Of a stretch of DNA of 64,000 nt, positions 9,182 through 54,577 are shown piece by piece; position 1 is the stretch's first letter; each line of letters opens with the position of its first letter. Position numbers and translations under genes: made by a program. The stretch lies in assembly GCF_947623445.1 (NCBI RefSeq), contig NC_135243.1, forward strand, positions 7,256,501-7,320,500. Reading direction: 5' to 3'. The notes beneath the pieces are model-generated. The model saw nothing but the letters and a program-made list of their open reading frames with translations. It was not told the origin of the DNA and did no database searches. This DNA is from Clavelina lepadiformis. Taxonomy: Eukaryota; Chordata; Ascidiacea; Aplousobranchia; Clavelinidae.

Positions 9182-9690
9182 CCAGGGAACAAGGCTGCCA
9201 CTCGTAGGGATTTTACCCTACGGTAGGTTTTTTTGGCCCCTTGTAGGGTGTAGGGTGACCCTACGGGTTTTTCACCTTTATTCATAGATTTCCTTTTGTT
9301 TAAAGTAAAATAAAAATAAATTCAAATAATAAATTTACTGAATAATGACAAAAACATAGTCTAAGCCAGTGGTGGCCAAACTGCGGCTCTTTAATGAATT
9401 AGCATTGTTGAATTAGACATGCATTTTCCCGGTCTAGACGAGTTGTTTGATCAAATTATGAAACAATGCGTTCTATCTCATGTAGTAACAATGGACTCAT
9501 CGTTGTAACATTGGACACTTTAGTTAAGTAAATTGTCAGATTGAAGCTGTACGTCAGGGCTGACCTAGTTTTAAGTCTTGGTTATGGTTATACTAATAAT
9601 TGTAAATTGCAAAAAGAGTTGGAGAAGCCCAGCAGGTGGAGACTGGAGAGTGAGACAGCAGATGAGCAGAATCAGCAGATTGAACAGACA

Positions 9691-10429: not shown

Positions 10430-10547
10430 AACAGACAGGATCACAGGAATCAAGTGATCTTGTTTTGATCAAGTCAAGTGATCTTGAATACGATACTTTT
10501 ATCATTAAATTACAATAATTCTGGTTGTTGACAAGTTGACAACGGTA

Positions 10548-12163: not shown

Positions 12164-12614
12164 TCAGTAACTAGTGTCACGTCGGCAACGAGATACAATT
12201 TCTGTAGCTAACTTGTCACATTATTATAAGATGTTTGAGCATTTTACATAAACCGTTTGGATGTGCGCACACTGCATAGACTTCATTGGCGTTATCACAG
12301 TAACTATAGATTCGCTATAAAAATGCTACAAGCGCTTTAAGAATCACACACAAGTCAAGTACGATAAATCCAAAATTTGCAAAAATGCCTGCGTGACTCC
12401 AAAGTAAATTAAAGTAAGTTTGTGATATTTTTGACTGTGTTTGCACTTACAGACCAAAGTTAGTTGTTAAGCTTAATGAAATCTGACCGAGACACCGAGA
12501 GCTGAACAATGAAACAAATGTAAACAAAAAAAATTGATATTTTTGTTTTTGATGTAGTCAGTGATGAGTAAAGATCTACCTTTTCTTAACAGATACTTCT
12601 ACATTGATTACATA
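12164..12614 (+). promoter_or_regulatory. 5' flank of oxygenase copy 3 with a splice-acceptor-like site
   Basis: Parts of this flank recur upstream of copy 5. The block GCTTTAAGAATCA near 12333 matches 20280, and TTTGACTGTGTTTGCA near 12431 matches about 20378. The conserved blocks are candidate promoter sequence. A strong polypyrimidine tract ending in TAG lies at 12541-12557, just before the first ATG candidate. That suggests either a 5'-UTR intron or a spliced-leader acceptor (inference). Confidence 0.4.
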
Positions 12615-16694: not shown

Positions 16695-16757
16695 ATTAGC
16701 AATACGAAATATAGCGGAACACTTTAGGAATAATTTAACCTCCTGCAATCAGATCCA

Positions 16758-16763
16758 AATAAA
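16758..16763 (+). terminator. Candidate poly(A) signal of oxygenase copy 4
   Basis: AATAAA 64 bp after the stop codon. The aligned place in the dead copy 1 reads ATATGAAATG, so the signal is lost there. Confidence 0.5.
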
Positions 16764-17169
16764 ATGTAAAGCAAATTTGTAAACTGTGTATGAAAATCAT
16801 GCTACACTGAATTGTGAAAATTAGAAAATGGGATTTAAAATCCAGACTATAAGTTTGTACGAGCTACTGTACTGTAATAGTTAATGCAATAGCTACTGTA
16901 ATAATAATGTAAATAGCTGTCTCAGTTTTTTCTGCTGCTTATTAGAAATTTCTGTTTGCTTTGTAAATATTTTGTTTCCGTTCATATGATGATGTTATTT
17001 CCTACTCGACGTTTACACTAATTAGCTTTATCATATTATCGCGTATCACATAGGTTCGAAAATAAGCGTGGACTTTCTTGTGTGTTGCATGATTTCACAT
17101 TATTACCATAATAAATATTAATTAGCGAAAACCAGGTCATAGTCATAGGTGAGTTTTTGGTCTGATTAG
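16764..17169. other. 3' flank of oxygenase copy 4
   Basis: The first 180 bp are paralogous to 7376-7587 (3' flank of copy 1), and part recurs inverted at 19735-19815. The remainder holds nothing recognisable. Confidence 0.6.
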
Positions 17170-18205
17170 TTGTTATGTGGGACTGATGACCATTATTAGT
17201 TCAGTTGTCAGCATTTGCAAAACATACCGCAATGACTGAAAACAACAGAACAAAAATTGAAAGCGACTGCAGAGTTTTTAACCCAGAATGGATCAATAAA
17301 TACTTATTTGCAGTAGTACACTCCAAAATACTCTGTCTTGTTTGCCGACAACTGGTTTCAGTTCCAAAAGAATACAATCTGAGACGCCATTTCGAAACTA
17401 ATCACCCAAACCTTGCTGAATTAGATACTAATGAAAAGAGCTTTGAAGCAAAGAGTATACGTAACAATCTTCGCTAAGAACAAAACGTTTTTTGGCTTTG
17501 GGGCAATGAAAGTGTTATAGCTACCAGAAATCGTTTCGACCTATCAAGGGAAATTGCTGCTGCTGGAAAAAGTTTTACTGAGGGAAAGTTCATTAAGCAA
17601 TGCATGTTACGTGCAGTTTCTTTCATTTACCCAAGAGAAATGGAAAATTTTAAAAACGTAGCCTTTAACGTGCAACTGCACAACGAAGAGTTGAAGATAT
17701 TGTAGAGAATTTAACAATTCAGCTACATCAAAAAGTAAAGTAATTTTTGTTTTATTCTTTGGCAGTCGATGAAAGTACAGATTGGACTGATACAGCACAG
17801 CTTTTGGTGTTCATAAGGGGCATTGATGATATTTATAACACATCTGAGGAGCTTGCTGGTATTCAATCTATGAAAGATCGGACAACTGGAAAAGGTATCT
17901 GCAGCGCAATTGTTGATTGCGTTACTACAAAATTATCCAGTGATTTCAGTAATTTAGTTGGACTATGCACTAACGGTACTCCAGCTATGCGCTGAAAAAG
18001 AAATGGAGCAGTGTGTTTGCTTTAGAAGTTTATTGGTAGAAAAGTAATCACACATCACTGCGGTATACATCAATAGGTTTTATGAAGCAAGGTGATGAAA
18101 TTTGACCATGTGATGTCTGTCGTTGTTTCGATTGTAAACTACATCAGGTCTAGGAAACTAAAGCATCGCCTATTTAAATCGTTTCTTGAAGAAGCTGGTG
18201 CATAA
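17170..18205 (+). pseudogene. Degraded hAT transposase of the GTF2IRD2/ZBED-like type
   Basis: From ATG 17232 the frame encodes a BED-like zinc finger: RVFNPEWINKY, then LCLVCRQL, then RRHFETNHPN. TAA at 17475-17477 interrupts it, and the same frame goes on to 17703 through a family-typical segment (ENFKNVAFNV). After a frameshift, 17747-17995 carries the catalytic-core signature LAVDESTDWTDTAQLL, then more stops, then HHCGIHQ-like and SFLEEAGA remnants to about 18205. The order matches hAT transposases related to vertebrate GTF2IRD2 C-terminal repeats, but the C-terminal dimerisation part is absent. Neither end of the element could be fixed. Confidence 0.8.
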
Positions 18206-18339
18206 TATTTGCCCTAGGTCCTAGGAAAAGTCGTAATTAAAAGTGGCTTTACAACTCTTTTGCTATTAACGCTATGACTTCGGTATTTATGAAGGTTCGT
18301 ATCTCTGTCTCGACACACCTAGTTTGTTCAACTGTTAAC

Positions 18340-19157
18340 TCAGGATGTAGTGTTCTTATTGACCACTTCTATTTTGCGATTTGCTCAGACGATTGAACTA
18401 ATAAAACAGGGGTGGGCAACATACGGCCCGCGACGGGATTTTGAGCGGCTCGCAGACAGTTTCCGGTCTTGCATGATAATGTGGCCTGCGGCCACATTCT
18501 GCCGCAATCCTTGTATTGCGTCACTGAATAAGTCCAAGTTTGCCAACCTGAGAAAGATGGCCATAAATCTACTTGTTCTGTTCGGGTCTACATACATTTA
18601 TGAGCAAACATTTTCGACCATGAACATTAATAAGACAAAGCTGCGTTCCAATCTATTCAGGAATCCGGCCCGCCAAGTACTTCATTTTCTCATATCAGGC
18701 CCGCCGACCGAAGAAGTTGCCCGCCCCTGTAATAAAACAACTGGAAACTTAATATGAGTTTATCTGACCATATGCAAGTCATTCCTAGAACAACTACTAA
18801 TTAGCAATAATCACGCTTTGAGATGAGATTCGTTGGTATTGAGGAATAGTTGTAAACTTCATCAAATTTACTGTTCATCTCTCCCGGACTGAAGGAATGA
18901 CAGAAAGGGCCAAGCCGGCATATGACAGAAAAGGATGTTACGGTAACACATCCAGTAGCGCAGTACACATCTCAATGTTACAGGTTCCCTAGTTAGCTTA
19001 CTTATTCAAAACATGAATTTGATTACTTATCATGTGGATTTGGCATTTGATTTGAATCATGGCACATAGACCTACTGTGCAGATTTGACGGTGATTATCA
19101 TGGCGAGACGAGCGTATAGTGCTACAGGCGCTTTAAGAATCATTCACAAGTCAGGTA
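18340..19157 (+). repeat. Duplicated oxygenase upstream block, copy A, carrying a hAT insertion
   Basis: Apart from a 323-bp hAT with one copy of its 8-bp duplication, this block is a near-identical direct copy of 19816-20305, which lies just upstream of oxygenase copy 5. The homology ends at TTCACAAGTCAGGTA (about 19155), where this copy is joined to an inverted segment rather than to a gene. It is a promoter-region duplicate without its gene. Confidence 0.9.
18407..18729 (+). mobile_element. Short hAT element with 8-bp duplication and hATC remnant
   Basis: The 323-bp element has CAGGGGTGGGCAAC at the left and its near inverse (CAGGGGCGGGCAAC read inward) at the right. It is flanked by an exact 8-bp duplication TAATAAAA (18399-18406 and 18730-18737). 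The paralogous block has a single TAATAAAA at 19879-19886, a true empty site. Internally, the plus strand encodes the end of a hAT transposase: LLVLFGSTYIYEQTFS followed by NINKTKLRSNL. It is therefore a deletion derivative of an autonomous hAT, probably related to the GTF2IRD2-like relic next door, and not a random MITE. Confidence 0.95.
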
Positions 19158-19191
19158 GGATTATCCCTGCAAATTTCTTGTTACTTTGCAT
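19158..19191 (-). pseudogene. Eleven-codon relic of an oxygenase gene start
   Basis: On the minus strand an ATG at 19191-19189 begins codons closely matching the N-terminus of copy 1 (MQSNKKFAGII against MPSDKKFAGII). The homology stops at about 19158, where the duplicated block A begins. It is a truncated fragment and cannot make a protein. Confidence 0.8.
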
Positions 19192-19815
19192 TCCTTTACA
19201 AGTCTAGTTAGCGTAGTTTGATATTTCTAAAGGAAAAACATTGCATTTTGATCAAGAGTCAAGTCTTTGCTTTGAACATTTGATATCAACCTCAATTTCC
19301 TAAACTTAACTTTGCTAATGTTTTTTCAAACCTTTTCCTCCTGATAGTTTAAAATATTTCTGCTTCCAATCAACATTCGATTGCAAGTGCAATAAATAGT
19401 TTAGTAACGATTTCCTAATTTGGTCTGCGTTACAAAACAAACTTGCTAACGCTTTTCGATAAGGAAACATGTAAACAGATGACAATTTTTTTGTAATTAA
19501 TTGCATCTTGTTTGCAAGACAGAGTATAGTTAACGCCGTTTGAATAAGAAACTTGGCATGTGGAATATGTTACGTGACACATGAAATATGGCACCAATTT
19601 CCGTTTAATATTTGATCGTTTATTTCCTTTTTCTGGTTAAATGCTTCTTCAGAAAGGCTGAACCGTTTGTACCCACTTTTTCTTGATGTAGCACACTAGA
19701 AATGGATTAGAATCAGCCTGGAAAAACTCACAAAATGATTTTCATACACAGTCTACAAATTAACTTTTACAATTCGTTTGGATTTAACTGATTGCAGGAG
19801 GTTAAATTTTTCTTC
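19158..19815 (-). repeat. Inverted segment: oxygenase 3' flank plus 5' flank and first codons
   Basis: Read on the minus strand, 19815-19735 matches the 3' flank of oxygenase copy 4 (near 16740-16801). Then 19705-19192 matches the 5' flank of copy 1 (3064-3618). Then 19191-19158 matches the first eleven codons of copy 1. This is the order expected for an intergenic spacer between two tandem oxygenase genes, so a piece of the array has been copied and flipped. Confidence 0.85.
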
Positions 19816-20305
19816 TCAGGATGTAGTGTTCTTATTGACCACTTCTACATGTCGAGCAATTAGCTCAGACCATTGAACTAATAAAACAACTGGAAACTTA
19901 ATATGAGTTTATCTGACCATATGCAAGTCATTCCTAGAACAACTACTAATTAGCAATAATCACGCTTTGAGATGAGATTCGTTGGTATTGAGGAATAGTT
20001 GTAAACTTCATCAAATTTACTGTTCATCTCTACCGGACTGAAGGAATGACATAAAGGGCCAAGCCGGCATATGACAGAAAAGGATGTTACGGTAACACAT
20101 CCAGTAGTGCAGTACACATCTCAATGTTACAGGTTCCCTAGTTAGCTTACTTATTCAAAACATGAATTTGATTACTTATCATGTGGATTTGGCGTTTGAT
20201 TTGGATCATGGCACATAGATCTACTGTGCAGATTTGACGGTGATTATCATGGCGAGACGAGCGTATAGTGTTACAGGCGCTTTAAGAATCATTCACAAGT
20301 CAGGT
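19816..20305 (+). repeat. Oxygenase upstream block, copy B, with the empty hAT site
   Basis: Near-identical to 18340-19157 without the hAT. It is continuous with the 5' flank of oxygenase copy 5, so this is likely the original location. The block around GCTTTAAGAATCA is also conserved upstream of copy 3 (12333). Confidence 0.9.
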
Positions 20306-20556
20306 ACTTCCATGTTTTCCTGATAAACCTAAAATCAGCATAAATTCCTGAGTGCAAAAGATCTATTATTGATAATTTTTGACTGTGTTTGCAATAAGAA
20401 ACCTCAGTTAATTGTTTAGCTTGATGATAAGTGTCTGAACGTTTAGGCTATTTTGGCAAAGCAAATAGAAACGTTTGTTTTTAATGACCTTATTGATATT
20501 TAAAGATCTATATTTCCTACACAGAAAATCCTAGAAATTGATTAGCCTGTGACATA

Positions 20557-21543
20557 ATGTTTAAGTCCAAACAATTTGCTGGAATAATACCAGTGGTTGA
20601 TTACAAGTTATGTGGATTAGATGTAAGCGACCAACAAGTTAAACGAGAAGATCTTTACAATGCTGGCAAAGAGTTAATCGATGCCTTTTCTGCTGTTGGA
20701 TTTGTGTACTTGACAAACAGTGGTGTTGATTCATCACTTTTGCAAGAAATCCGAGATGTTACAGATAGATTTTTCAATCTCGAAGTTGCACTAAAAGAGC
20801 GTTACACGAGCAAAGAAAGTATGTTAGGACACATTGGTTTGAACAGAGAAAACCTGGACAAGTCAAAACCCGAAGATTTTAAAGAAGCCTTTAGAATGGA
20901 TGGTACTGTCTTCAAACATCCCGAGAAACTGCCTGAAGATATTTGTCCAGGAATCAGAAATTTGATTTTGAAGTTTATGACCATCTGCAGGAGCATAGCT
21001 GAAAGAATTCTGGATTCACTTTCTATGGCAATGGATTTCAAAGAAGAAGACTGTTTAAAGAAGTGTCATAATCTTCTTCAAACCGAAATAAATTCATCGT
21101 TGTTGCGTTTGAATTACTACGCACCAGTTGATCAGAATACCCTTAAACCTGGATCTGTACGTCTCGGCGCACACAGAGATTTAGGAACGGTCACTTTGTT
21201 GTTTCAAGATAATGTTGGAGGATTGCAAGTGGAACACAATGGAAAATACGTTGACGTCCCTCCTCTGCAAAATGCTATTCTTTTAAATGCAGGAGATGCC
21301 TTGCACTCGATATCTGGTGGTTTAATAATGTCCAAGAAGCACAGGGTTGTAGTCCCACAGGAAGAAGTGAAACAGAGATTGACACGTCATTCATACGGGT
21401 TTTTTGCATATCCTGATGATGACGTAATGATAAATCCACCATCAATCCAGAATGATGAAACAAGCTTGAATGAATTGCCCCATTCAATGACATTTAAGCA
21501 GCTGTTTACCAATTGGTATTCCAAAACACGCGTACCAAACTGA
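20557..21543 (+). CDS. IPNS-like Fe(II)/2-oxoglutarate oxygenase, copy 5, intact
   Basis: A 328-residue single-exon protein, the closest relative of copy 3: both start MFKSKQFAGIIPVVDY and long stretches of nucleotides are identical. Fe(II) ligands are in GAHRDLG and KKHRVVV, and RHS carries the co-substrate-binding Arg and Ser. Differences from copy 3 cluster in two windows, around GHIGLNRENLDKSKP and in the last third (SYGFFAYPDDD), and four residues are missing near the C-terminus. A CTACACAG acceptor-like site ends at 20524, 32 bp before the ATG. AATAAA at 21919-21924 is a distant poly(A) candidate. The reaction type is predicted from the family; the substrate is not known. Confidence 0.93.
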   Translation: MFKSKQFAGIIPVVDYKLCGLDVSDQQVKREDLYNAGKELIDAFSAVGFVYLTNSGVDSSLLQEIRDVTDRFFNLEVALKERYTSKESMLGHIGLNRENLDKSKPEDFKEAFRMDGTVFKHPEKLPEDICPGIRNLILKFMTICRSIAERILDSLSMAMDFKEEDCLKKCHNLLQTEINSSLLRLNYYAPVDQNTLKPGSVRLGAHRDLGTVTLLFQDNVGGLQVEHNGKYVDVPPLQNAILLNAGDALHSISGGLIMSKKHRVVVPQEEVKQRLTRHSYGFFAYPDDDVMINPPSIQNDETSLNELPHSMTFKQLFTNWYSKTRVPN

Positions 21544-22667: not shown

Positions 22668-25600
22668 CTACGTCTTGCCAGACTGAAACAACCGAAAAGC
22701 ACTGACGTCCAGTTTCTGCTGAAGTATTCCAGTCAGAATATATTCGCTGTTAACAACGGGTACACCAGCCTGTAAATTATAAACATAATTAATCAAATCA
22801 AACATCAAAATAGAGAGTTTAAAAACGACGATGATTTATCATCGTCCTGACTTTAAATCATGTAATTTATCACCATGAAATGATCTACCGGTACAATCAT
22901 CACCTTGTGAAAAACTTTTTTTTCACACGAAAGTTTCATTTTCCGTAATTTTCCGTAAATGTTTATAGGGAAGTAATGTGATATTTCAGTTAGAATCGCT
23001 GCTTTCACGATCATACCGACGTTAAACAAGTTTTACAATAACAATTTTCAATGGTCGTAGTCAGGGCTTCCCAAACTGGGGGTCGCGACCCCGCAAGGGG
23101 TCGCGTAACGAACTTCAGGGGTCGCAGAGCGTATACCAATTTTACACGAAGTACAAAATACAATCAAAACAAAATATCGTTCCAGCATAATCAACATTGA
23201 AACCGCCTTGAGACCAGAATTAACAGATATTGAGCCACGGCTGGACTTGCTTTGTAGCAGAAAGCAGTCGCACCAATCACACTGAATAAATGTGCGTGCT
23301 TTTTTGTTTCCAGTAGCCTAGACGTGTGTAAAGTAGTAAGTAGGCTCTGAGTTCTGGTTGCTTGAATTCAGTCTTTGCATCTCAATAAATGTCACTAATG
23401 ACTAATGTATATTTCGCACTGCTAATCAATTTAAACGTGAAGGGTCGCGGAATACTTCAGAAGTTTGAAAGGGGTCGCGAGCAAAAAAGTTTGGGAAGCC
23501 CTGGTCGTAGTTATCATTTTGACGTGGATCGTGAGAACCAAAACATGTTTCGTTTTTATTTTAAGACAAGAATGAAAAAATATACTTACTTACCTTTAAG
23601 GTAGAGGTACAACATCTCTTGTCTGATTCCGACGCCACAATAACCACATCATCAAGATCCAAGCCCTTTGGCATCTTCCGGACACAGACTCCTCCACCAC
23701 ACTCGATGATCTGATACATTTGATGCGGGGGAGGAAGCACAGATTTCGTGACGTGGATCCGGTGACCTGAAAATAATTGTTGAGGTCGTGACCTCGCCAC
23801 AGCCATGGTCTCGGTGAAGTTAAATCCATATTGGGCTTCGATCGATTGAGCTGATGATGGGCTAAGGGTGGTGTTGAAAGACTCATTGAAATTCTCGTAA
23901 CTGTCTTCTGCCAAAAACCTAAGATGGGAAAAAGGGAAGCTTTCTTTTATGAGCTGTTCCAAAGTCGAATAAATTCAAAGGAAACCGAAAAATATAATAA
24001 CTAAAAATGAGTACATATTAAACCTGTGCGTGCAATTACTTTCATTTACGTGTCTCAGATGCTGAAAAATACTCACCTGGCAGAGTAAAGTAAAGATATT
24101 TCGCAGACGTTTAATACTATAAAAATGAACTATTGATCATAATTCATAACATAGTTACAACAAAATAGTTTAAAGATGAACTGCTACGTCTACCTGGATT
24201 GCTTCTTTGAATCACGTAACCATTCTTGATTTACGATACGCAAGCCTCGAACAATCGCACACAGAAATTTTACAGTGCGTCGAATCTTGTCAGTAACCAG
24301 GTGTGTGCATTCATGCATGTCATCAGTCAGGTGACCACCCAGCTCTTTAACGATATTTTCACCAACTTTATCAATCACACCTGTTAGAAGAAGTAATTCA
24401 CAAAATAAGTGGGTCCAAATTAGGGCAATAAGAATGCAGTGCCTATGTTAATGAAAATTGTATTAAGAATTGTATTTACATTGTGGTAGGTTATGAGTAA
24501 GATACCTGTAAACATCACTTTGGGCTTAAGCCGCCTCGGGCGAAGTGACAAAGCCGCAGCATGAAGTACCTCCTCTTTAATCTTCTTCACTATATCATAC
24601 AAACATGACATGTTTTTAGAAATTTTGTATGAAAATGGTGGTTCTAACTTAAACGTCTAAGGACATGAGAAACTAGATTGTACGCTTCATATTATTGCAG
24701 TGGTCGTGAGCACAAAGACTGGCGAAATTTTGCGAACTGAACTCAAACCTAATGTAAATTTGAAAAAATTACTTACGTGGTGCGTTTTTTGCTGTTGTGT
24801 CATCGTCGCTTTTTATCGTTTCTGTTTTTCTCTTTCTTCCAGCTCTTCTGCGCTCTCTGGTGACAACCTCTGTAGACTGCTGATTTTGTCTAACGAAATA
24901 CAAGCCAAACAACTCACTTTAAAGGCAAATTGGGAAATGGCACGAGGAAAATTATTGGGGTTTGTGCAAACACATATATCATGAAGGTCAAAACAAACAA
25001 ATCCCAACTCGATTCGAGTAACAACCGAATGATAAAATTTCATCAGCATGTTGCCCAATTTCAACTTAAACTTGAAGCAATCACTAACCAATTTGTTTTG
25101 TTTCAAAAAATGTATCAACCTATCTCTAATTTTAGACAAGCACACAAATAAAACTTTGAATAAAACTACTTACTCAGAAAGTTTTAGCTCTTCTTGTTGA
25201 GGTACGTTTGTGTCATTCTGTGCAAGAGAACCAGATCTCACTGCAGTAGAGTTTTCATCAGCCAAAAATTCTTGCTTAACAGAAGCCATTTGTTCAACAG
25301 TTTTTCTGTTGCACAAATAAATAGAAATCAATCTTGTGTGAAGTTATGTTGAAGTTCAAAACATCAACAACGTGCAATTATGAGTCACGGAAGTTCAAAA
25401 TGCAAAACGGGCGTGATTAATTAGTTTAGAACAAGATAAGGTCAAGTTATTATATTCAAGCTTACCCAAAATGCTCTTTGGATGTTTGTTTCTTTTTCAG
25501 TGTCTTAGAGCTTACTCTGGCCACAGAAGCACCATTTGGTTTATCTGCAACCTCCTCTGTGACGGTTTCATTCTGATTTTGAATAGTTTTTCTTGTTGAT

Positions 25601-28600
25601 CTTCTGACACCTACAATAGCGCTGCCCTTGTTCATTGAGCATGTTTCTTTGTTTTCACCGAGAGACTGAGATTCTTTGCTTTTACCTGTTCTCTTTTGCC
25701 GCCTTGTAATGGCTTTGCTGGTACACTCGAAGCCAGCTTTGCTTTCATGCACTTTGCTTCTTGTATTTCTAGTATTTTTTCTGCTCATACTTGTTGCTTT
25801 GCTGTCAAATAAAACCGTTGCTGCAGTCACAACTATATCATTAGCAGTAGTAGCACTTGATGATCCAGCAGAATTGCGTCCATTGCACATTTTATTGCTA
25901 ATGGTAGTATTTGCAACGCTTTGCAATCCTGAGGTTCTCCTTTTAACAGTCTTGGTCCACTCGTAAATGTCAGAATTTCTCTTATTTTGACCCCTACCAG
26001 GTCTCTGCCGTCGCTGACGTGTAGATACTTGCTCCTCGTTAATGGCAGCATCTTGCAGTGTCTTTGCGCCATAGTTCACATCTGCCTTCATAATGGGAGT
26101 GGTCTTCGGGATGCTTAACTCCATTTTAACATCTTCCCTATCCTCATTCTGCCCCTCGTAAAATGCCTGAGTGTGAGCGACAGTATAAGCATCATCAACA
26201 TCATCCACAGTGGTTCCGTTGCAAATCTCACTTTTATCAGCAAAGGCCATCTTCTGATTATCATCATCATATCCATCTTCGGATAAACTATCTTCTTTTA
26301 GTGAATCAGGCAGATGCTGGTTGTATTGTGATAGCGAAGTAATACAGTTGCTTGTTATGTGTTCTGCAACCAACCTTTTGTTTGCTGAAGAAGTTCTTGG
26401 CTCTTCAGTATCATAACCAGTTCCACTTTTCACAATACCATCCTGATAACTTTTGGTAGCCTGGTGTGAAGTCAAATGTTGTTCCCTATTATTAGTTGAA
26501 TTTGCAGTAGGGTTTAATTTCTGTACGCATACTGTTGGTTCAAAGTCGATGTCGATTTCATTATTGTCAATGCTATTTTTAGCACTACGAAAAGTGTCTT
26601 CAGTGTTCTTCGAGTATGTCTGTGTTGCCACCAAATCATTCTCAACTTCATCACAAAACTGAACTTCTTCAAAGCAATTGCCCTTCGCTTTGAGACCCGC
26701 AGGAGATGCTGCAGGTGTTGAACAAAGAAGTTGAACATCTCCTGTTTGCACAGCTGAATTGTTACTATCAGAAAATGTATCATTTGTGGTAATGTCTAAT
26801 GCCAAGTTAAAGTTATCTTCATTTGTACCGTTTAGTGTAGTCGTCATGCCTGATTCTTCAATATGACTTTTGGTTGATAGATTTGAGTAACAATCTAACT
26901 GATCATTATGTTTTAAGCTTTCCGTGTTGATATCATCAGGAGATTTCCTAATGTCAACTGTTTTTGTGTTGTCCTCAATTTTTGCAAAAATGTTTTCGTT
27001 AACAGTTGAGTCAATGTTACACGGTGAAGTTGAGCTATTACCATCTTGGTCATTAGATGGCATCTCCGTAGAAACATTAGATTCAAGCAGTTTTACAGTA
27101 TTGTCATCACAAGTTGGTGGTGATTTTATTTCTTTGCATGACTCATTCTCCATATCTATGTTGTCTTCAGAATGAGATGGTAATGGAGGACCTAATTCAC
27201 TCTCTCTTAGCACCTGGACATACGCTGTAAATAAATCTTGCGTCTCTGCCTCCTCTAAAGGTCTACTACTCTCTTTTGCATCCGAATTATCTTCCGGTGA
27301 TGCTTTATCCTGGGGTTTATGGTTTTCATCAAAGTTTGGTGAAGATGAGTTGTCCAAATCTTTATCAGAAGTACATTCCGCTTCTTCTTTGTGTCTTGAT
27401 CCTTGCTCTACATTCTCACAGAGTATATTCGAATAGGCAGTAGCAAAGTCAAGGGTTTCCATGGATTCTATCGTCACCTTTACATTTTCTGGTGTGGCAT
27501 GTTTACATGTTTCTTCTGTATCGTTAGAGCTTATAAGACTAGCTATCTTGGCATCGTAATCGCTGCATTTCAAGTCTTCGGCTGCAGAACTGTTCTTCTT
27601 GGAAATAGTTGCTTTTGAATCTTCTGCTTCAATATTTAGGTCTACATTGTTTAAGCAATCGATCACACAATCATTGTCGTTTTTAGGATTGAAGTTCTCG
27701 TAATCATCTTTGTCTTTTTTTATGTCAATATTAGCTTCCATCTCAGACTGCAATGACACAGTTTGAATTCCTGACAGCGTTTCATTTTGATGCTTTTGGT
27801 GATGTATGTCGTCATCCACAGGCAACGTGTCTGAGAGTGACCCCTCCATGCTGTCATCCAAGTCACTGATTCCAGTAACAAATGTTGCGTTTGAGCAAAC
27901 ATCTTTCTTCCTGTCAGGATCATGGTGGTGACTTTCTAGTTCCTCCTCGGGAGTAGGTGGCAGTGACTCATCCAAATCGCTGATGCCCGTAGTAAAAGAG
28001 TCATCACTGTTTTTGCGATTTTTCAAACGAGTGTGTTGTTTTGGAGGTTTCTTCTTTAGCTGAAAATTTTTCTTGACATCAACATTAAACTCTTTCTCTT
28101 CAAGGGTTGATAATCTTTTGGCTTCAGTGTCTTCTTTACTTTCTTTTAGTGTTTCTAGGTAGCTGGAGTAAAGATCTTGTGTTTCCAGTTCATCCATTAA
28201 TGCATGTTTATCATTGGTGGCAGCCACATGAAGAGGAACAATATGTCCCGCAGCTAAAAAATGATAGAATTTGTCAGAAAACTGAAAACATTTCAATACG
28301 CACCTTAGTTAATCGAACATTTCATAAACATTATGATAAATACTTTATCATAAGTCAAGTAGCTGAAATAAACTTTCATGAAAATTGAGATTAAAATGAA
28401 CCACTGGGTTAAAGTTAAAACAGTTAATAGTTAACAGTTAAAACAGTGAAGTTAAAGAGATATAGCTCCATGCTCCTAAGTATTAGCTGAAAGTGGGTAG
28501 TTTCTTTAAAAAATTCTTACATAGGTTTTCTTCTATACCTTGGGTTTCAGAAGTTGAAAATGAATCCTCAGCCGGACGACGTTCTTCTCCTCTTACGTCA

Positions 28601-38426: not shown

Positions 38427-38436
38427 TATATATATA
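38427..38436 (+). promoter_or_regulatory. Candidate TATA box of the CLCA-like gene
   Basis: TATATATAAG, 230 bp before the start codon. An acceptor-like TTTCTGTAG ends near 38639, so a 5'-UTR intron or trans-splicing could account for the distance. Weak evidence. Confidence 0.25.
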
Positions 38437-38665: not shown

Positions 38666-41600
38666 ATGTTGAATATTTTGTTGCTTCTAGTCCCTCTTTT
38701 AGTGTTTGCTGATGCTTCAATGATCACTCTGGCAAACAACAGATACGAGGGGTTGGTGATCGCGATTAACCCTGAAATCGCAGAAGACCCGAAAATAATT
38801 GACGGAATAAAGGTAAGTATTGATTTCACGATTATTTATATTAAAAGATATAACTTATCTATTTTATAAATTTCAAGCTATCTTGTTTCAACTTGTTTGG
38901 TGTGGACGTTGTGGTTTCCATCATAATTGCATTAGTTTATTTTCAGAGCATTATGACCGACGCTTCAAGCGTTCTGTTCAAAGCCACCGACAACCGGGCA
39001 TACTTTGGTGAAATTACTATTCTAGTGCCGGAGAAATGGACAACTGGAACCTACAAGGCTGCAAGAAACGAAAGTTACGGCAAAGTACGCATGATGTATG
39101 GTTTATGGCTTACGGTTTATTTATCCAACACATCATACACAGTATCTGGCAACATATGAAATTGATTGACATAATTGTTGACATTTTTTCTTACTGATGT
39201 TTCTAGGCTGGCATTCTAGTAGCATCTGCCAACCCGAAACATGGAGATGAACCATACACGATGCAATATGGAGAATGTGGAGAGCCAGGAGAATATATTC
39301 ACATTACTCCTGATTTTATCCTAAATGATGACGTCATTGAAAACTATGGCCCAAAAGGTAAAAAACGGAACGTTTTTAAACTTTCATTGGAGAATTTTTA
39401 GGCACAATTAAAAAAGCTTTCAAATATGAAAAACGTGATACATTTAAGGTAAAACTATGATCCATGAGTGGGCGCACTTCCGCTGGGGCGTCTTCGACGA
39501 AAGCGCCACTGAAGGTTACGATCCCTTCTATTATGCTTCGGAGAGTCAAAACCCTGAAGCTACCAGGTGATTTTCTATAAACTTTAATCCAAAGCTTTCT
39601 TAAGTGTTTTTTAATATTCTTAACATGTCTTGCGTCATATTTCAAGTTGTTCTACTGTTTAGCTCCTCTTCCTCCTTTTCCATATTTTAAGACCTTTTGC
39701 TGAAGCTGACTTTCCTTTTTACTTGCTTGTTATAATTATGCCACAGCACGTTTAGTTAAAGTTATTAACATATATTAAAAACTTATTGATATTTTGAAGA
39801 TGCCCTGTATCATTAAAAGGAACAAATGTGGTAATTCTAAACGACAATGGAACAAGAGATTGTCAGTACAACGGGGATACAAATTGGCTTCCTGAAGATG
39901 GCTGCGTTTTCATCGTTGATTCTGAACAACCTGAAAGTCTAAACGCCTCCCTTATGTCACATCAATATTTAGATCAAGTATATCTCACTTCCTTAAAACA
40001 AGCTCGTTATAGACAATTACTGTCTTATCAGTAGCGTGGAATTGAAAATTTAATAAAAAATGAAACCATGAAGAGCGTCTAGCCTTCAATGAAATTTTTC
40101 CATTCAAGGATATTTCTTAGATTTTGGCATATATGTTAGAAACTGTAGTTACACAAACGCGTTTGTATCTAACGATGGTTTGTCGTGTGCAGGTACTGGC
40201 GTTCTGTCATAGTGACGAAAGCGATCCGGTCAACTTGCACAACCATGAGGCACCGAACGAACACAACCGACTATGCAATCAACGAAGTGTTTGGGATGTC
40301 ATGCTGTCTTCTATTGATTTCAAGAACAAAGCCAATCTACCGCAGGTCGGATTTGTGAACCCACAACCCACTTTCAAAGTGATTCAACCAAAGACACCAC
40401 GCTACGTGCTAGTTCTGGACACTTCTGGAAGCATGAATGGTGTAAGTTACAACATATTGTTTTTAGGCCTCTTTAAGCACGAGCAGAAAATGAGATATTT
40501 ACATTACTGATTCCCGCTGGTTATGCAAGTTTTATTTTAATAGATCAATTACGATTCTATGATGACTGCTTCGTCATCTTTCATATCATACTACGTTCCC
40601 GACAAAAGCGCAGTTGGGATTGTTGAGTTCAATTACGAAGCACAAGAACTTTGTCCGTTGATTATGATAAATACTCAAACCGATCGCAATTATCTGCTAA
40701 ACCGTTTGCCATCTCCACCTGATGGCGGCACTGCAATTGGCCGTGGAATCTTAAAGGGGATTGAAGTAACGAATACATTGTTATAAAAATTTCGTTTTAT
40801 CTGTCTATATTATGTCTATCCATTTTAATTCATTTTACCTTGAAGAAAACGTTTGGGTATAAGAAGAAGTGGGTTTGTTTAGAAAGTGCATATCTACGAG
40901 TATTTGCAAAATTTTGAAACAGTTTTTGCCTTGTCGTTTACTTAGTAAAACAATCCACTTAAAATCTATGAAGTAAAGCTGCTCTTCAAACTATAACAAA
41001 ATTCTAACAAAATTCATGAAGTTAAATTTTTATTCAGACGCTTTTAATTATTTTTTCAGACCATGACCGATTTTGGAGATTCTTCAGGAGGTCACCTCAT
41101 TGTACTTACAGACGGTCAAGAAAATGTTGCTCCGTATATTAACGAAGTTCGAGAGGATCCGACATTTAAAAGCGCGGTATGAAAAATATAGCAATAAATA
41201 ATAATAAATAATATTATGTGATTGTTCAGCATAATCTACTTGAACTTTTTTATTAAAGCTTGTCCGTGATTTTTCAAACATCCCAGAAGGACCTTTCATA
41301 TAACTCAGACAAAACAATACACACAATATAGCATGTATTAACATCAATTAATCATTTACAGACATCATTCTTGGGTTAAACTTTAAAAAAATGTTTAGAA
41401 CGTAATTGTCGACTCCGTGTTTTTCGGAACGTCTGGTAGTGTTGATCTCCAGAAGTTAAGTGATGAGACAGGAGGTAGAACTACCTCACCTAATGATTTA
41501 AAGAGTCTTATTGAAGCATTTCAAACACTTTCTGAAAACAATGATGGAGATATTCAAGATAAACAGTTTCAGGTTGGCAAATAAATGTTTATTTTTGTTT

Positions 41601-44600
41601 ATTGTTGTCAAGATCCTTCCCCTTCAAACTAATAAACATTTACCGTATAGATGTAAAGATGAAATTGCCGTATTTATTGTAGATTTTTTCTGGATCTCAC
41701 TTCATGAATGCGCACGACTTCACTAGCGGAATGGTGGTGCTGGATTCGACTGTTGGAAAAAACACTCTGTTTGGTATATCGTGGTCTCAGTACCCTTATG
41801 CCCCAGACGTGGTAATTACCAACCCTACTGGAGAAAAATACTGTTCTACCCCACGTCCGCGTTGTGACAGCACAGGAGTCAGTGAGAACATCAACATAAA
41901 GACAATCAATTTTCAAATTCCTGGAGTTGCCAAGGCAAGAGCTCAATCCTTTAGGTCTACGCTGTGAAAAAAATTTGCAATAACAAAAAATGCAAAGCCG
42001 GAATCGTCTGCGATTACAACAGTATAGTCTAGTAAAACATTTCGCATTATGTTCTAACTATAGTTGAGGTTTTTCAACTTGTTTGTCTCAGGTTTATACA
42101 GTAATATACACTTCCCTGTTATGCAATATGCAGGCAGGTAACTGGATATACGAAATAAGAACCGACACTCACTCCATGACTGTCAACGTATTGGTAACTA
42201 GCCAGGCTGCGGATAAGGACGTTCCGCCAATCGTTGTAGAATCATCCATTTCTTCGTCAGATGTTTCCAGTGGTTCGCCGCTCGTTGTGAACGCAAAGGT
42301 GAAAAAAGTTGTTAAAATTGAGAGAAAGTTATCAAAAACTTTAGTTAAATAATTGATGAACTCCAGCAACTTCTTCTAAAAGTTTATGTTGCTTGATTTA
42401 GGTTTCTATGGGATATGAACCAATTTTGAAAGCGCTTGTTACGGCCAAAATCACATCCACAGACACTGGCGCAGTGCATATGCTTGACCTCTATGACGGT
42501 GGTTCAGGTCAAAATTGTTTCCTTTATAATATGATTCACTTACAAAAAATGAACGTGATTACACTATTTCGTAGGTGCACACGGAGCAGTATAATAAGTG
42601 TAGGCTTAATGATAAAACCTATATACATTTACAGCTCCCGATGTGCGAAAAAATGACGGTATATATTCCAGATATGTCACGGAGTTCTCAAATACAGGAC
42701 GATACTCTGTGCAGGTATATGCAAGAGTTGCGCATTTAAGTAGTTTACCTGTGCAAAAAAACTTTGAAAGAAAATTCTTTGTACACTATTTTAGGTTAGC
42801 GTTCAGGGATTTGGAAACAACATTTCAGCAGCCGGACCTGCGTTATCGCCAGGATCACCTGCAGCATTTAACTTCGGGCATGTTGACAGCAAAGGTTTGT
42901 AGCTTTTCAGGAATATATTGTTAAGCAATGGGAAACATTAAGAGAAAGTTTGCAACACCTCCTGCACTTGTATTATAGGAAATATTGTTTTAAACCCTGC
43001 CGCTCACGAACACGTAACATCGAGCAAGCAAAGCGGAACGACCACGACAGACATCGATCCGTTCACTCGTATTGATACTGCAGGAGCTTTTTTCTTTTCC
43101 GAGTAAACATTAAAGATATTTAATCTAACAACAAACTTATTTTTATTCAACAATTCAAGTTTGCGTGTGTGCTTCACGTACTGTACTTTTTTCTTGTGTT
43201 ATAGAACAGCAAGTGCAGACTCAAGCGATCTCTTCCCACCAAGCAGAGTAATCGACCTGACAGTTAAACAAGTTGATGCCCTCGACGTCAGTCAAGGAGT
43301 TCTGTTGACATTCACCTCACCAGGAGATGATTATGACGCTGGAACCGGTAATAAACTTATGTGTTATGCCTATTTTTCTTCCGAACATAAACAGTAGCCT
43401 AAGATAGGAATGTAGACGATTAAAATTTTATCTTGTTTGTACTTAGACAAGCAGGACAGCATGATCTGTATAAATCAATTAACTTGTGTAAATAAAGCAC
43501 AGATTAGTAAGCTTACCGACAATAACCTTAAATTCGATTGAAATGTAACTTGTCTGTTGTCCGCAACATTTTTTTCAGTTGCGCTATGTTTGACTGTTAT
43601 AAAAATATATCGTGGTACTTCTTGTGCTGTAAGTTGGTACTGTTATACTGTAGAGTAAAACATGAACCACATTTGAAATCTTTTTCAGTGTGAATTTACT
43701 TTATATTTTATTTAAAGCCAATTCCTACGAGATTCGTTACACTTACGGCAGTCCGAGTTCTCTTTCTAAATCGTTTACCGCCCAAAATCCTGTAAAAAGC
43801 GGAAACCTTATATCCGGCGATTTAACGCATCCCAGTGTTGCCAATAGCATAGAAAACTTTGTGGTCAACCTCACAGATATTCCAACAGATAAGGATTTAG
43901 TAACGTGAGTATAAATTTTCTTAAGAAACTTGGAAAATGACTTTTTTGGTTTGCTAAATCTGTGCTGTAGTCTGTACAGTTACTTAAGCAGCTCTCATAT
44001 ACGGTTAGCAATGGTTTAGTAACACTACTTCTTATTTGTTATTTTTTATCTGTCCTGTTTTTATTGCTTGTGGCTAGTTCTGTTTGCTAGTTTGTTTAAT
44101 CTTCGGCATCCGCTGTTCATTATTTTAACATTTTCCTTTCAGAGTCGCTTTTGCGCTTCGTGCTACTGATGATGATAACAAAGTTGCCGATGTCTCCAAC
44201 ATAGCGATGATGAATCTCTTCTTGAAACCTCCGGCTGTGTCTTGCTCTAATGGAGAGGGATCTCCAATAAGTTCGATTCCATTTGAAAAAAAAGGCGATT
44301 GCAAAAACTTTTATCAGGTTTGATGACAATAAACCTATCATCAGATTTCTTTGAGAAAGATAATTATCCTAAATCAACATCTGGTACATCTGATATCTCA
44401 GGGGGGCATTGATAAGATTTATTTAACACTAAAAAAATAAAATTTTCGTCTAAAATACTTAATTATACTGTTCAACTGCAACTTTCAGTTAAAGTTTCAA
44501 GTCCAAGTTTAATTAACTTATTGTTGGCAATATTCAATAACTGAAAGTGTAGGCTAGTTCATCTTTACTTTTCCAATTTGGCCTATATACTATAGCCTGA

Positions 44601-45824
44601 CTGTTAACACACTTCTAATTATTTAGTTGTTGACAAAAATTTTACTGCTATTCCAGTGTTCGAATGGAGACCTATATACTCTACCCTGCAAAGAAAATAC
44701 TGTTTTTAACCCAAGCATTGGCGTATGCGATCGTCCAGAAAACGTTCCAAGTTGCTCTGGGCAGACTCTTGCCACAATTGCACCACCAACTGGTTCATCA
44801 GAACCACGTAAGATCAGGCTGTCGAAGTATATAATTTTGACTGTTGATTTTTTGACTGTTGATAATTGAGGTTGTTGGTTTAGTGGCCTTGCTATAATCG
44901 TCATCAGCATGTAAACGAACCATCACCATTTTCAAGCTCATTTGAACTCTTTTATGGTTTGTCGCTTTTTCCCATGCATTAGCGCATTTTATTATCAACT
45001 AATATTGTTTTTCGTCTTCACTGTACCAAGGACGAAAAAATTTAAACAGATGAATACATGATAGTTTGTCAATTATGTTGATTGTAAGTGACCATTACTC
45101 TTTATCGTATTCTTTTAGCTCCGCCTTCTTGTAGCAGCACTGACGGCATGGACTTATTACTTCCTATTCCTGGAAAATGCAATAAGTATTACCAGTGCAA
45201 TGCAGGTAAATAATTTTTGTGATTTCAAAATAAACAAGGACTTAACCTTTTACGATTATCGTCAAATACTGCGGAAGTCAGCGGTAATTAGTGAAGATTA
45301 TACTTTGTCAAGTATTGATGTTATATAGAAAGTATATCACAAAACTGCTATATACTACGTTAAGCATATAGGCCTAATGCCAAATAAATCTCCTAAATTA
45401 ACTGCATCTTGAAAGTGTTATCAAAACTTTACAGCAATGTACACAACACATACAAAGATATTAATTATTAGCACTTCTGAGCTATAGCTTTTTATAAGCA
45501 ATGTGATAAAAACGTAAAATTTTTACTGTATACTGTGCACTAATTTTTACACAGCGTCCTGGTCGTCGTGACTAATTGATTACGTCAAACTAATTTATCC
45601 TGTACCTCAGTAAGTTGTAACAAAAATATTCTCAAAACAACGCTGGCTCATAGAAAAATCTCTTAGCATCAATACAACATATACTTGTGCCTATCAAGTG
45701 CAAGTTACCTTACACTTAAAACTTTTTTAAAGGTATATTAATTGAGAGAGACTGTCCTCCGGGGCTGGTTTTCAACCCTGATACTCTCTACTGCGACTGG
45801 ACCTACAACGTACCTGGCTGCTAA
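38666..45824 (+). CDS. clca: CLCA-like secreted metalloprotease/VWA protein with two C-terminal chitin-binding domains
   Basis: Twenty-one exons: 38666-38812, 38947-39084, 39207-39357, 39449-39566, 39800-39977, 40193-40441, 40544-40765, 41060-41176, 41399-41572, 41683-41934, 42134-42298, 42402-42507, 42635-42714, 42795-42894, 42979-43102, 43205-43347, 43718-43904, 44143-44317, 44657-44807, 45119-45205, 45733-45824. They total 3156 nt, 1051 residues. Signal peptide [17 protein letters not shown]. The CLCA N-terminal domain has the metalloprotease motif [13 protein letters not shown] (His151, Glu152, His155, Asp162). The VWA domain has a complete MIDAS (Asp320 in DTSGSM, Thr390, Asp419). A CLCA-type beta-sandwich region follows, then two peritrophin-type (CBM14) domains at about 917-975 and 997-1051, each with six Cys spaced for chitin binding. 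Family members are secreted, self-cleaving mucus proteins. The chitin-binding tail is unusual: typical CLCAs are 900-940 residues and lack it. The intron after exon 10 appears to be GC-AG. Confidence 0.93.
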
Positions 45825-46068: not shown

Positions 46069-46074
46069 AATAAA
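46069..46074 (+). terminator. Candidate poly(A) signal of the CLCA-like gene
   Basis: AATAAA 244 bp past the stop codon, the first canonical hexamer downstream. Confidence 0.5.
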
Positions 46075-52291: not shown

Positions 52292-53143
52292 TTAAACCTT
52301 TGGCTTAAAATTATCCTTTTCATTTCGTAGAAATCCCATTGTTTTTATTCCATCCGAGGTATGGCACCTCCTTTGGACCACAGGATCATTAACTCTCATA
52401 AATGGATTATATTCTAACTCCTCACCAATGGTGGAAGGTATGGTTGGTAAATTTTCCATTCTCTGTTTCATTGCCCATTGAAGTTTATTTTGCACACTGG
52501 GGTTGTCTGGTTCAGCAAATTTAGCATACTTCAAGTTGCTTACGCTGTATTCATGGCCGCAGTAAACTTTGGTATTGCTTGGGAGCTTTGACAGGATGTT
52601 CACCAAAGCATGGTACATTTCGGAAGGCGTCCCCTCGAAAAATTTTCCACAACCAGCCAAAAAGAGAGTATCTCCAGTGAACACTGCAGCAGGCTCTTCA
52701 TTAGACTCAACGAAGTAACAAATATGACCAGATGTGTGACATGGTGTAAACAGGCTTCTCACAGAGAGCGAGCCAATTTTAAAGCAGAAGTCATGAGCCA
52801 AAGGTGTAGTAACTCCAGCAATTCTGGTGTCCCCTCCATACACGGTTAAACCTTTGACTTTCGCGATTATGTCCTCGTTTCCACCAGCGTGATCCCAGTG
52901 ATGGTGGGTTGTAAGCACCGTAGTCAACTTGACACCTTCGTCGGCTGCAGCTTTTATAATCTTATCAGGCTCAACAGGGTCCACTGCTGCTGCTTCATTA
53001 GTGGTTTCATCCACCAACAAATACATGTAATTATCCTCTAACGCCGGTACAATCTTAACCCTCATGTTTTTTAAATAACTATTAAACGGCTTCGAATGGT
53101 AAGTCAACAACCTTTTCGCAATATCGAACACAATCTTAACCAT
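52292..53143 (-). CDS. hagh: Hydroxyacylglutathione hydrolase (glyoxalase II)
   Basis: Hydrolyses S-D-lactoylglutathione to D-lactate and glutathione, the second step of methylglyoxal detoxification. The 283-residue single-exon protein has the metallo-beta-lactamase metal motif THHHWDH (residues 79-85), further ligands in TPCHTSGH, FTGDTLF and VYCGHEY, and the C-terminal glyoxalase II helical region with NPFMRV. The first ATG is at 53143; the frame is open further upstream but without an ATG. Residues 1-26 are basic and amphipathic, like a mitochondrial presequence. A second Met (residue 27, codon at 53065-53063) begins MRVKIVPALEDNYMYLL, where the cytosolic form starts in mammals. An acceptor-like TTTGTATTGCAG lies about 17 bp before the first ATG, suggesting a 5'-UTR intron or spliced leader. 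No introns in the coding region. Confidence 0.95.
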   Translation of the reverse strand: MVKIVFDIAKRLLTYHSKPFNSYLKNMRVKIVPALEDNYMYLLVDETTNEAAAVDPVEPDKIIKAAADEGVKLTTVLTTHHHWDHAGGNEDIIAKVKGLTVYGGDTRIAGVTTPLAHDFCFKIGSLSVRSLFTPCHTSGHICYFVESNEEPAAVFTGDTLFLAGCGKFFEGTPSEMYHALVNILSKLPSNTKVYCGHEYSVSNLKYAKFAEPDNPSVQNKLQWAMKQRMENLPTIPSTIGEELEYNPFMRVNDPVVQRRCHTSDGIKTMGFLRNEKDNFKPKV

Positions 53144-53221
53144 TCTTGGCAAGAACACTGCTGCAATACAAACGATTTTAGCATCACGAGCGAGCACACC
53201 TTCGATTTGTTTGCTTGGCAA

Positions 53222-54577
53222 ACAAAGTCAAACGCAGTCATGCGTATCAGTTTATGTTTCCAAAAAACTTTTTAAAAATATTATAAAATATTTAAAAATT
53301 TGTAAGCATGTGGCACTTTAAGTTAAGGGGCTGAAAGCCCATCTGAAGGCCTATCTTAAACAATACAAAATAACATTTTTCAACTTGCATTTGCTACTAA
53401 ACAAGTCCGGTCACCTAGCTGAGTTTTTGTATCCACCAAGAAGTAGAATAAACATACTTAATGCAGTATTTTGAGCAAATTCTCGTATCTGGAATTTTCA
53501 CACCAAATACTTAAACTTTGAAACAACTTTTTTCCTTACATTTTCCAAAAAAAGCAGCCAAAAAGCCTTAATTTTGAACCAACACAAAATGTCAACTTTA
53601 GCCTGGGCCTACACTCAGCATACGTCATAACAACAACAAACCAACACAAATTAACGTAACATGCGCACTGGACCGGAACTATTTATGCAACCTTCGTCAC
53701 AATCGCCAAGTCGCCGTTTCAAAACTGTTTAAAATGGTATTACAGCCCTTTAAGGATAATGTGTTTCATCATTCAGAATGATAATATATATAAAATAAAA
53801 ACTAACAATATACTAAAATAAAAACTAGCAAAACTACCGGTCCTGGTACCGGTTCAGTCCTGGTCTTGTATTGTCGTGGAAAGTGCACAATATTTATAAA
53901 ATAAACGTAGGTCTATTCTTGCATTTTTGCAGCTATAAACTACCATAGTCCTCATAAGATCATGAATAATTTCAATGAAATTATCAAGATATACAAAAAG
54001 TATTTTGATTTTTCAGATAAATTTCAAAAGATGTAAGTTATATATATAAGTTTTAGGCATTATACCAGAGATGATTCATAGCAGGCACTCTGCAAACTGA
54101 TAAGAGACATTCCTAGTTTTCTACAGTAAATTGAACAAGCAGTTTTTCTTTCTGAGTGGTGTATTTACGCAATGTGTGAAGCGCGCATGTCGAAATTAAA
54201 TAAGTGACACAAGATAAAAGGAACAAAGCAAAAAACATTATAAGATAAAACATGATTCATAAGTTATAGGATACGAACTACCCTTAGAACAACTTGACTA
54301 CGATGGGTTAGGTTAAGGGCGTCAAGATAAAACACCTTGAAAAAATATGCAATAACTGAAGAAACCGAGTACAACGGAAAAGGAAAAGCGCCATAATGCA
54401 GGGTTACACTTTAAGCGTTTTACTATGGCACAGTGTCGAGCACTCTGCGGTAACGACAAGCGAAATATAAGAAATAATGTTTCCAGAACATTATAAGCCT
54501 TGCGTGAAATATTTTGGCGAGAAAGCAAGGGATCGTTTTTCCCAGGAGGACGCAGCTAAAGTCAACTGGCACCAAAT
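53222..54577. other. Intergenic DNA upstream of glyoxalase II
   Basis: Contains the glyoxalase II promoter at its left end and the 3' flank of the sushi/VWA gene at its right. No gene is recognised. In particular, I saw no trypsin-like protease exon here. Confidence 0.5.

What the first reader, a model, noticed from the sequence alone, without database searches (positions are those of the whole stretch)
38666..45824. CLCA metalloprotease/VWA protein carrying two chitin-binding domains
The exons encode a complete CLCA (protease motif [13 protein letters not shown] and a full VWA MIDAS) and then continue in frame through four exons into two peritrophin-type chitin-binding modules before the stop. 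CLCAs are mucus-resident, self-cleaving secreted proteins. Attaching chitin-binding modules would tether one to a chitin-containing mucus or tunic layer. I know of no such architecture in vertebrates. Chitin-bearing gut mucus and chitin-binding immune proteins (VCBPs) are known in ascidians, which makes the fusion biologically sensible.
Basis: partly seen in the sequence, partly recalled or inferred. Interest (0 to 1): 0.82.

Follow-up and report, generated by a model that had tools for sequence, protein, structure and literature searches.

The report
CLCA mucus protease with chitin-binding tail
A sea squirt gene encodes a protease of the mucus-associated CLCA family whose tail end is two chitin-binding modules, which would fasten it to the animal's own chitin-containing mucus; the same design occurs in a second gene on another chromosome.

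Summary
The gene (38666-45824, +) has 21 exons and encodes 1051 residues: signal peptide, full-length CLCA region (TIGR00868 matches residues 4-905, E=1.1e-193), then two six-cysteine CBM14 modules (Pfam E=3.7e-25). Exon 18 holds both the end of the CLCA homology and the start of the first CBM14, so the two parts cannot be separated at an intron. A gene on chromosome 7 of the same genome has the same architecture, 21 of 21 exons matching in phase and 12 of 12 CBM cysteines kept. Other CLCA paralogs here lack a detected CBM14; five tandem ones end in a hydrophobic, GPI-signal-like tail, so the fusion exchanges one C-terminal anchor for another. Chromosome lengths point to Clavelina lepadiformis. 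Best explanation: a secreted CLCA protease held on endogenous chitin, probably acting on mucus proteins. Expression, chitin binding and substrate are inferred, not shown. A further lead: the canonical self-cleavage Arg is Pro in both chitin-binding copies. New variant of a known kind; the literature listings seen show no report of it, and protein domain databases could not be searched.

The parts
38666..45824 (+). whole coding region, 21 exons, 1051 aa plus stop
38666..38812 (+). exon 1: start codon, hydrophobic N-terminus like a signal peptide (mean Kyte-Doolittle 2.5 over 17 residues; no signal-peptide predictor run), start of the CLCA domain
38723..40336 (+). CLCA N-terminal domain (residues 20-292), spread over exons 1-6
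39463..39501 (+). [13 protein letters not shown], zinc metalloprotease motif (exon 4)
40406..41509 (+). VWA domain (residues 316-477), exons 6-9; DTSGSM of the MIDAS at 40418-40435
42852..42869 (+). GSPAAF (residues 719-724, exon 14): position that aligns with the canonical CLCA self-cleavage site; Arg replaced by Pro
   Evidence: R|ALY motif from PMC9007345 passages
44143..44317 (+). exon 18: end of the CLCA C-terminal (FN3-like) region and first half of CBM14 no. 1 in one exon
44243..44755 (+). CBM14 no. 1 (residues 918-975), exons 18-19, intron after FYQ, phase 0
45130..45821 (+). CBM14 no. 2 (residues 997-1051), exons 20-21, intron after YQCNA in the next codon, phase 1; stop at 45822-45824
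38427..38433 (+). TATA-like sequence upstream of the start codon (a consensus match only)
46069..46074 (+). AATAAA polyadenylation-like signal downstream of the stop (the same hexamer also occurs 4 times in the introns between exons 17 and 21)

Best explanation
This is a secreted CLCA-family zinc metalloprotease whose C-terminal anchor position, after the FN3-like region, is filled by two CBM14 modules. Shown: one gene with intact HExxH and MIDAS motifs, a full-length CLCA region and two six-cysteine CBM14s; a paralog with the same plan; constraint on the modules; tandem paralogs with a hydrophobic, GPI-like tail in the same position. Inferred: after secretion the two CBM14s bind endogenous chitin fibrils of the gut or pharyngeal mucus (less likely the tunic or foreign chitin). 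This holds the protease/VWA part there, where it trims or rearranges mucin-like proteins, as CLCA1 was reported to do with MUC2. The tail most likely came from the 3' end of a peritrophin-like CBM14 gene.
For: Gene model. Domains. Join inside exon 18. Chromosome 7 paralog with 21 of 21 exons matching in phase and 12 of 12 CBM cysteines kept. CBM1 pN 0.28 vs pS 0.75 (56 codons) and CBM2 pN 0.35 vs pS 0.94 (55 codons), against 0.53 vs 0.54 in the 22-codon linker. Hydrophobic tails in 5 of 5 long tandem paralog models. Highest 19-residue mean hydropathy of the window protein beyond residue 25 is only 1.0. Both CBM14s align with modules of solved chitin-related proteins: CBM1 with chitinase 5wus, E=2.2e-8; CBM2 with chitotriosidase 6so0, E=2.5e-6. 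Chitin-synthase-like exons on C8. CBM14 loci with the same two intron types and the same VPGC-stop ending. Literature passages: CLCA1 cleaves MUC2 (PMC6851300); Ciona VCBP-C and Ci-GFM1 carry a chitin-binding domain in the chitinous gut membrane (PMC6109156).
Against: No transcript, protein or binding data. 'CLCA' and 'chloride channel' have 0 occurrences in the main text of the Ciona gut-membrane paper (supplements not read) and of the ascidian tunic proteome paper. CBM1 lacks the Trp that CBM2 has after its CD, so the two modules may not bind equally. Pfam gives no FN3 hit in the C-terminal CLCA region; the FN3 name rests on TIGR00868 collinearity and the literature. The TIGR00868 match is below its curated cut-off. 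The chitin-synthase family search also matched in 4 of 14 control genomes, all bacteria, so weak hits to it are not specific.
Confidence: 0.62

Rival explanations
1. The tail binds foreign chitin (fungi, crustacean food, parasites) or tunic polysaccharide, and the protein is an immune effector rather than a mucus-processing enzyme.
For: VCBP-C can bind bacteria and fungi as well as host chitin (PMC7947342 passages); a VCBP was reported in the Ciona tunic proteome (PMC7401272 passages).
Against: CLCA1 is known from mucus and cleaves a mucin (PMC6851300 passages); the genome has chitin-synthase-like genes, so host chitin is a likely ligand.
Confidence: 0.2
2. The CBM14 modules are a structural or dimerising tail that no longer binds chitin.
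For: CBM1 has CDRPENV where CBM2 and the matched chitinase have a Trp after CD.
Against: 12 of 12 cysteines are kept in the chromosome 7 copy and pN is well below pS in both modules; the FYQC/YYQC stretches are kept too.
Confidence: 0.12
3. Two adjacent genes (a CLCA and a small chitin-binding protein) were joined wrongly by the reader.
For: An ATG-ATG pair (MMNLFL, residues 906-911) precedes CBM1 in exon 18, and AATAAA occurs in introns between exons 17 and 21.
Against: Exon 18 holds CLCA homology up to residue 905 and CBM1 from 918 with no intron between; MMNLFL aligns with the last CLCA residues of paralogs; the chromosome 7 copy has the same join.
Confidence: 0.03

Closest known systems
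CLCA family (calcium-activated chloride channel regulators; Pfam PF08434, TIGR00868)
   Same: Signal-peptide-like N-terminus, HExxH metalloprotease domain, VWA with intact MIDAS, following region collinear with the TIGR00868 profile
   Different: Two CBM14 modules at the C-terminus; Arg of the canonical self-cleavage site is Pro; no transmembrane or GPI-like tail
Mammalian CLCA1
   Same: Predicted secreted form without a membrane anchor; same domain order up to the FN3-like region
   Different: CLCA1 self-cleaves at a conserved site, and the domain list read for it ends with FnIII (PMC6851300 passages)
VCBP-C and Ci-GFM1 of Ciona
   Same: Secreted proteins with a chitin-binding domain, found in the chitinous gut membrane (PMC6109156 passages)
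   Different: Immunoglobulin V or mucin domains in place of a CLCA protease
CBM14 loci of the same genome (C8:174-223 kb, C2:26.22 Mb)
   Same: CBM14 with intron after FYQ phase 0, and a terminal CBM14 with intron in the YQCGAG stretch phase 1 and a VPGC-stop end; CBM1 69-74% identical to the best C8 units over 34-35 residues
   Different: No CLCA match is listed at either place

Membership tests
CLCA | N-terminal CLCA domain (PF08434) | tested here: met
   E=1.4e-85, residues 20-292
CLCA | HExxH metalloprotease motif | tested here: met
   [13 protein letters not shown], residues 151-163
CLCA | VWA domain with MIDAS (DxSxS, T, D) | tested here: met
   PF00092 E=6.2e-12; DTSGS, GGT, LTD present
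CLCA | beta-sheet-rich and FN3-like C-terminal region | tested here: met
   TIGR00868 covers residues 4-905, to profile position 862 of 863; Pfam fn3 itself not detected
CLCA | curated NCBIfam cut-off of TIGR00868 (calcium-activated chloride channel protein 1 subfamily) | tested here: not met
   645.4 bits against 900.85: a CLCA family member, but not assigned to that vertebrate-type subfamily
CLCA | canonical self-cleavage site (R|ALY type) before FN3 | tested here: inconclusive
   Aligned residue is Pro in window and C7A, Arg in the 5 tandem paralogs; cleavage itself not testable
CLCA | protease activity / self-cleavage | not testable with these tools
   needs expressed protein
CBM14 chitin-binding proteins | six-cysteine peritrophin-A module | tested here: met
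   two modules, 12 Cys in all, PF01607 E=3.7e-25
CBM14 chitin-binding proteins | binds chitin | not testable with these tools
   needs pull-down
Vertebrate CLCA2/4-type membrane CLCA | C-terminal transmembrane anchor | tested here: not met
   highest mean hydropathy over 19 residues beyond residue 25 is 1.0

The most novel reading that the evidence does not exclude
In this tunicate lineage the C-terminal anchor of a CLCA protease was exchanged from membrane to chitin by capture of the 3' end of a peritrophin-like gene. The exchange went together with loss of the canonical self-cleavage site, so the protease stays covalently tied to the chitin mesh and remodels mucins in place: an intermediate between the insect peritrophic matrix and vertebrate mucus. 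That the two kinds of tail occupy the same slot is shown; which came first is not. Loss of self-cleavage is a guess from one aligned residue in two genes.
Probability: 0.3. Interest if true: 0.75.

Novelty: new variant of a known kind. Interest (0 to 1): 0.58.

Why it matters
CLCA1 is one of the major non-mucin proteins of intestinal mucus and its role is unsettled (PMC6851300: abstract start, passages). A relative held on chitin by its own tail would tie CLCA function to the chitinous gut barrier of basal chordates, which has been proposed as the link between peritrophic membranes and mucus (PMC6109156 passages). It offers a concrete test: does a CLCA work on mucins when fixed to the matrix, and is self-release needed? 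It also suggests that the position after FN3 is a swappable anchor (transmembrane, GPI-like, chitin-binding, none).

Tried and rejected
Split-gene reading: rejected (join inside exon 18, same join in the chromosome 7 paralog). One-off or assembly artefact: rejected (second complete gene on another chromosome). Dead protease: rejected for this gene, HExxH intact; it may apply to the chromosome 1 paralog, REWAK. Pfam search for FN3 in the C-terminal region alone: nothing. dS between the two CBM-bearing genes is saturated, so their duplication could not be dated. The paralog tree, rooted at the midpoint for drawing only, groups window and C7A (97/98) but cannot show whether the fused or unfused form is ancestral; the C1 row is long and unsure. 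Structure prediction was not run: the tool takes proteins that the DNA gives letter for letter, and a spliced product is not one. Five literature searches bore on CLCA with chitin binding or with ascidians. Searches found 0 papers and one search found 1 (a shrimp paper, not opened). One search found 206 and one search found 551, of which I saw the first 20 each. One listed silkworm midgut paper (PMC10899340) holds both 'clca' (once) and 'chitin-binding' and was not opened. Over the whole session I saw passages of eight papers and no whole text. UniProt, InterPro and other tunicate genomes were not available, so an automatically annotated equivalent may exist elsewhere.

Full report
WHAT THE WINDOW IS. 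The window is G000:C4:7256501-7320500 of a 209,060,895-base genome in 95 contigs. Contig lengths C4 25,070,715 and C7 20,448,514 and C8 19,509,797 round to chromosomes 4, 7 and 8 (25.07, 20.45, 19.51 Mb) of Clavelina lepadiformis kaClaLepa1.1 in PMC10884593 (passages). C1 (28.78 against 28.79) and C2 (26.53 against 26.54) differ by about 0.01 Mb, and the whole by 1 Mb (210.1 Mb, 102 scaffolds in the paper). The species is inferred from these lengths, not from a label.

THE GENE. Splice sites were set by hand and gave an open 1051-residue product in 21 exons, 38666-45824. A spliced aligner of my own returned the same exons, but it had this product as query, so this tests the aligner rather than the gene. 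Of 20 introns 19 begin with GT and one with GC; all 20 end in AG. Pfam finds CLCA (residues 20-292), VWA (316-477) and two CBM_14 stretches. TIGR00868, a full-length CLCA model, matches residues 4-905 over profile positions 8-862 of 863 with 645 bits; its curated subfamily cut-off of 901 bits is not reached. The VWA part matches 6pyo, E=1.2e-16, deposited as a calcium-activated chloride channel family protein (that it is the CLCA1 VWA is recalled).

THE JOIN. CLCA homology ends at about residue 905 (44206) and CBM14 no. 1 begins at residue 918 (44243); both lie in exon 18 (44143-44317). Reading on past exon 17 gives a stop at once, and an end there would cut the C-terminal CLCA region.

THE PARALOGS. 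Of 46 CLCA matches in the genome at E up to 0.001 (control 0 of 14 genomes), 5 are this gene, 4 lie on C7, 1 on C1, 6 at C4:20.33-20.37 Mb and 30 at C4:22.94-22.99 Mb. Of 80 CBM_14 matches at E up to 0.01 (control 1 of 14 genomes) two lie on C4, both in this gene; five lie on C7, in two pairs plus one elsewhere. The tool calls such counts lower bounds. Spliced models and a corrected first exon show that the C7 gene (C7A, 18639225-18630809, minus) has the same plan: 1061 residues, 21 exons, 14 of equal length and 7 differing by multiples of three, TAA after the last Cys. Window and C7A share 616 of 1047 aligned residues, and 12 of 12 CBM cysteines are kept. By region: CLCA domain 193/273, VWA 78/178, CBM1 33/56, linker 6/22, CBM2 29/55. 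Synonymous sites are largely saturated. pN/pS is 0.28/0.75 in CBM1 and 0.35/0.94 in CBM2 but 0.53/0.54 in the linker, so the modules appear constrained and the linker does not; the regions are short. The second C7 pair (C7B) is a recent partial copy of the 3' end of C7A, exons 17-21, with 19 base differences over 232 codons; one search lists no CLCA N-terminal match there.

THE ANCHOR SLOT. Five long tandem C4 models (C4a, b, d, f, g; they begin at query residues 3, 17, 20, 47 and 17, so their first exons are partly unresolved) read on from the FN3-like region into a small-residue stretch and a hydrophobic tail. In the four that were measured the best 17-residue stretch (mean hydropathy 1.9-2.5) lies 3-4 residues before the stop. 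C4f has a Thr-rich insert and then a similar tail, judged by eye. This looks like a GPI-anchor signal; no predictor was run. C4c and C4e are partial. The ends of C4h, C4i and C1p were not resolved. PMC9007345 passages say that mammalian CLCA clusters 2/4 have a C-terminal transmembrane domain and clusters 1/3 are secreted. So two CBM14 modules sit in this gene and in C7A where other family members carry a membrane anchor or nothing.

THE SELF-CLEAVAGE SITE. PMC9007345 gives the chicken and Xenopus sites as QNR/ALY and RSR-ALY. In my alignment the matching stretch is GSRAP in four and GSRSP in one of the five tandem paralogs, GSPAAF in the window and GSPATF in C7A. C4h and C4i contain SRLAYFPG nearby, which the program did not align in register; matching it is my reading. 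The C1 paralog has SENVW and also a broken HExxH (REWAK). Against a strong conclusion: the CLCA1 cleavage sites in MUC2 are IRL|IGQ, TAL|ATS and VIQ|RDE (PMC6851300), so Arg before the cut is not a general need of CLCA1; and only two CBM-bearing genes are compared.

WHERE THE TAIL CAME FROM. The exon-19 peptide of CBM1 is closest to CBM14 units at C8:174-223 kb (74% over 34 residues for one, 69% over 35 for most; weaker units there go down to 56%), closer than to C7A's CBM1 (62%). Units in the two C8 stretches read have the same intron position (FYQ|C, phase 0), although the donor read there is GC. CBM2 has another intron position (phase 1, after YQCNA), matched by the last CBM14 at C8:177058-177294 and at C2:26224909-26225155. 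Both of these end in VPGC-stop, as C7A does in VPDC-stop and the window in VPGC-stop. Several pairings join exons across distant units and are not gene models; I took only those with adjacent exons as evidence of intron position, together with the repeated unit. The simplest inference is capture of the 3' end of such a gene; direction and time are not shown.

IS THERE CHITIN TO BIND? Six matches to Chitin_synth_2 lie at four places in C8:5.11-5.175 Mb, weak singly (25.7-32.5 bits; 4 of 6 over the cut-off alone, a fifth with its neighbours). The same search also matched in 4 of 14 control genomes, so such hits are not specific by themselves. In the first place a 70-residue stretch is assigned to Chitin_synth_2 at 3.5e-9, over its cut-off, and a 39-residue stretch to glycosyl transferase 2 at 0.013, under its cut-off; that they resemble animal chitin synthases is recalled. 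In Ciona the gut envelope membrane is framed with chitin, and VCBP-C and the mucin Ci-GFM1, both with a chitin-binding domain, rank second and third in abundance there (PMC6109156 passages). CLCA is not named in that main text.

MECHANISM. Shown: one gene, intact protease and MIDAS motifs, two CBM14s with all cysteines, same plan in a second gene. Inferred: expression; secretion; binding to endogenous chitin; holding of the protease/VWA part in the chitinous mucus; processing of mucin-like proteins there, by analogy with CLCA1 and MUC2 (PMC6851300). Guess: no release by self-cleavage.

NOVELTY. Five searches of the open literature showed no report of this architecture in the listings seen (0, 20 of 206, 20 of 551, 1 and 0 papers). 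That library lacks most subscription papers, and domain databases could not be searched. I rate it a new variant of a known kind.

Noticed in passing
G000:C8:190819-222618 (L030 = C8:190001-194000): 33 CBM14 exon matches at a period near 990 bases, with further ones on either side. In the four units read, each is followed by a Thr-rich stretch: probably one giant chitin-binding, mucin-like gene.
   Followed up: partly
G000:C8:5110568-5175460 (L026, L027): Four chitin-synthase-like places in a row; only the first was read.
   Followed up: partly
G000:C1:18898181-18908215: Divergent CLCA paralog with the HExxH motif changed to REWAK, likely without protease activity.
   Followed up: no
G000:C7:18579992-18578549: Recent partial duplicate of the 3' end (exons 17-21) of the chromosome 7 CLCA-CBM14 gene; no CLCA N-terminal match listed there.
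   Followed up: partly
window 6670-21543 (+): Tandem open frames of a 2OG-Fe(II) oxygenase type (12558, 15672, 20542, a part at 6670; the one at 12558 scanned with Pfam), apparently in single exons, with a hAT transposase-like frame at 10509. Origin not tested.
   Followed up: no
window 25462-28308 (-): 948-residue open frame rich in acidic residues and Ser, without a Pfam match at E up to 0.01.
   Followed up: no
G000:C1:11729103-11739573 (-): VWD exons with a CBM14 match on the same strand about 2.5 kb upstream: candidate mucin-like gene with a chitin-binding domain, like Ci-GFM1.
   Followed up: no
window 52292-53227 (-): Hydroxyacylglutathione hydrolase-like open frame in one exon.
   Followed up: no
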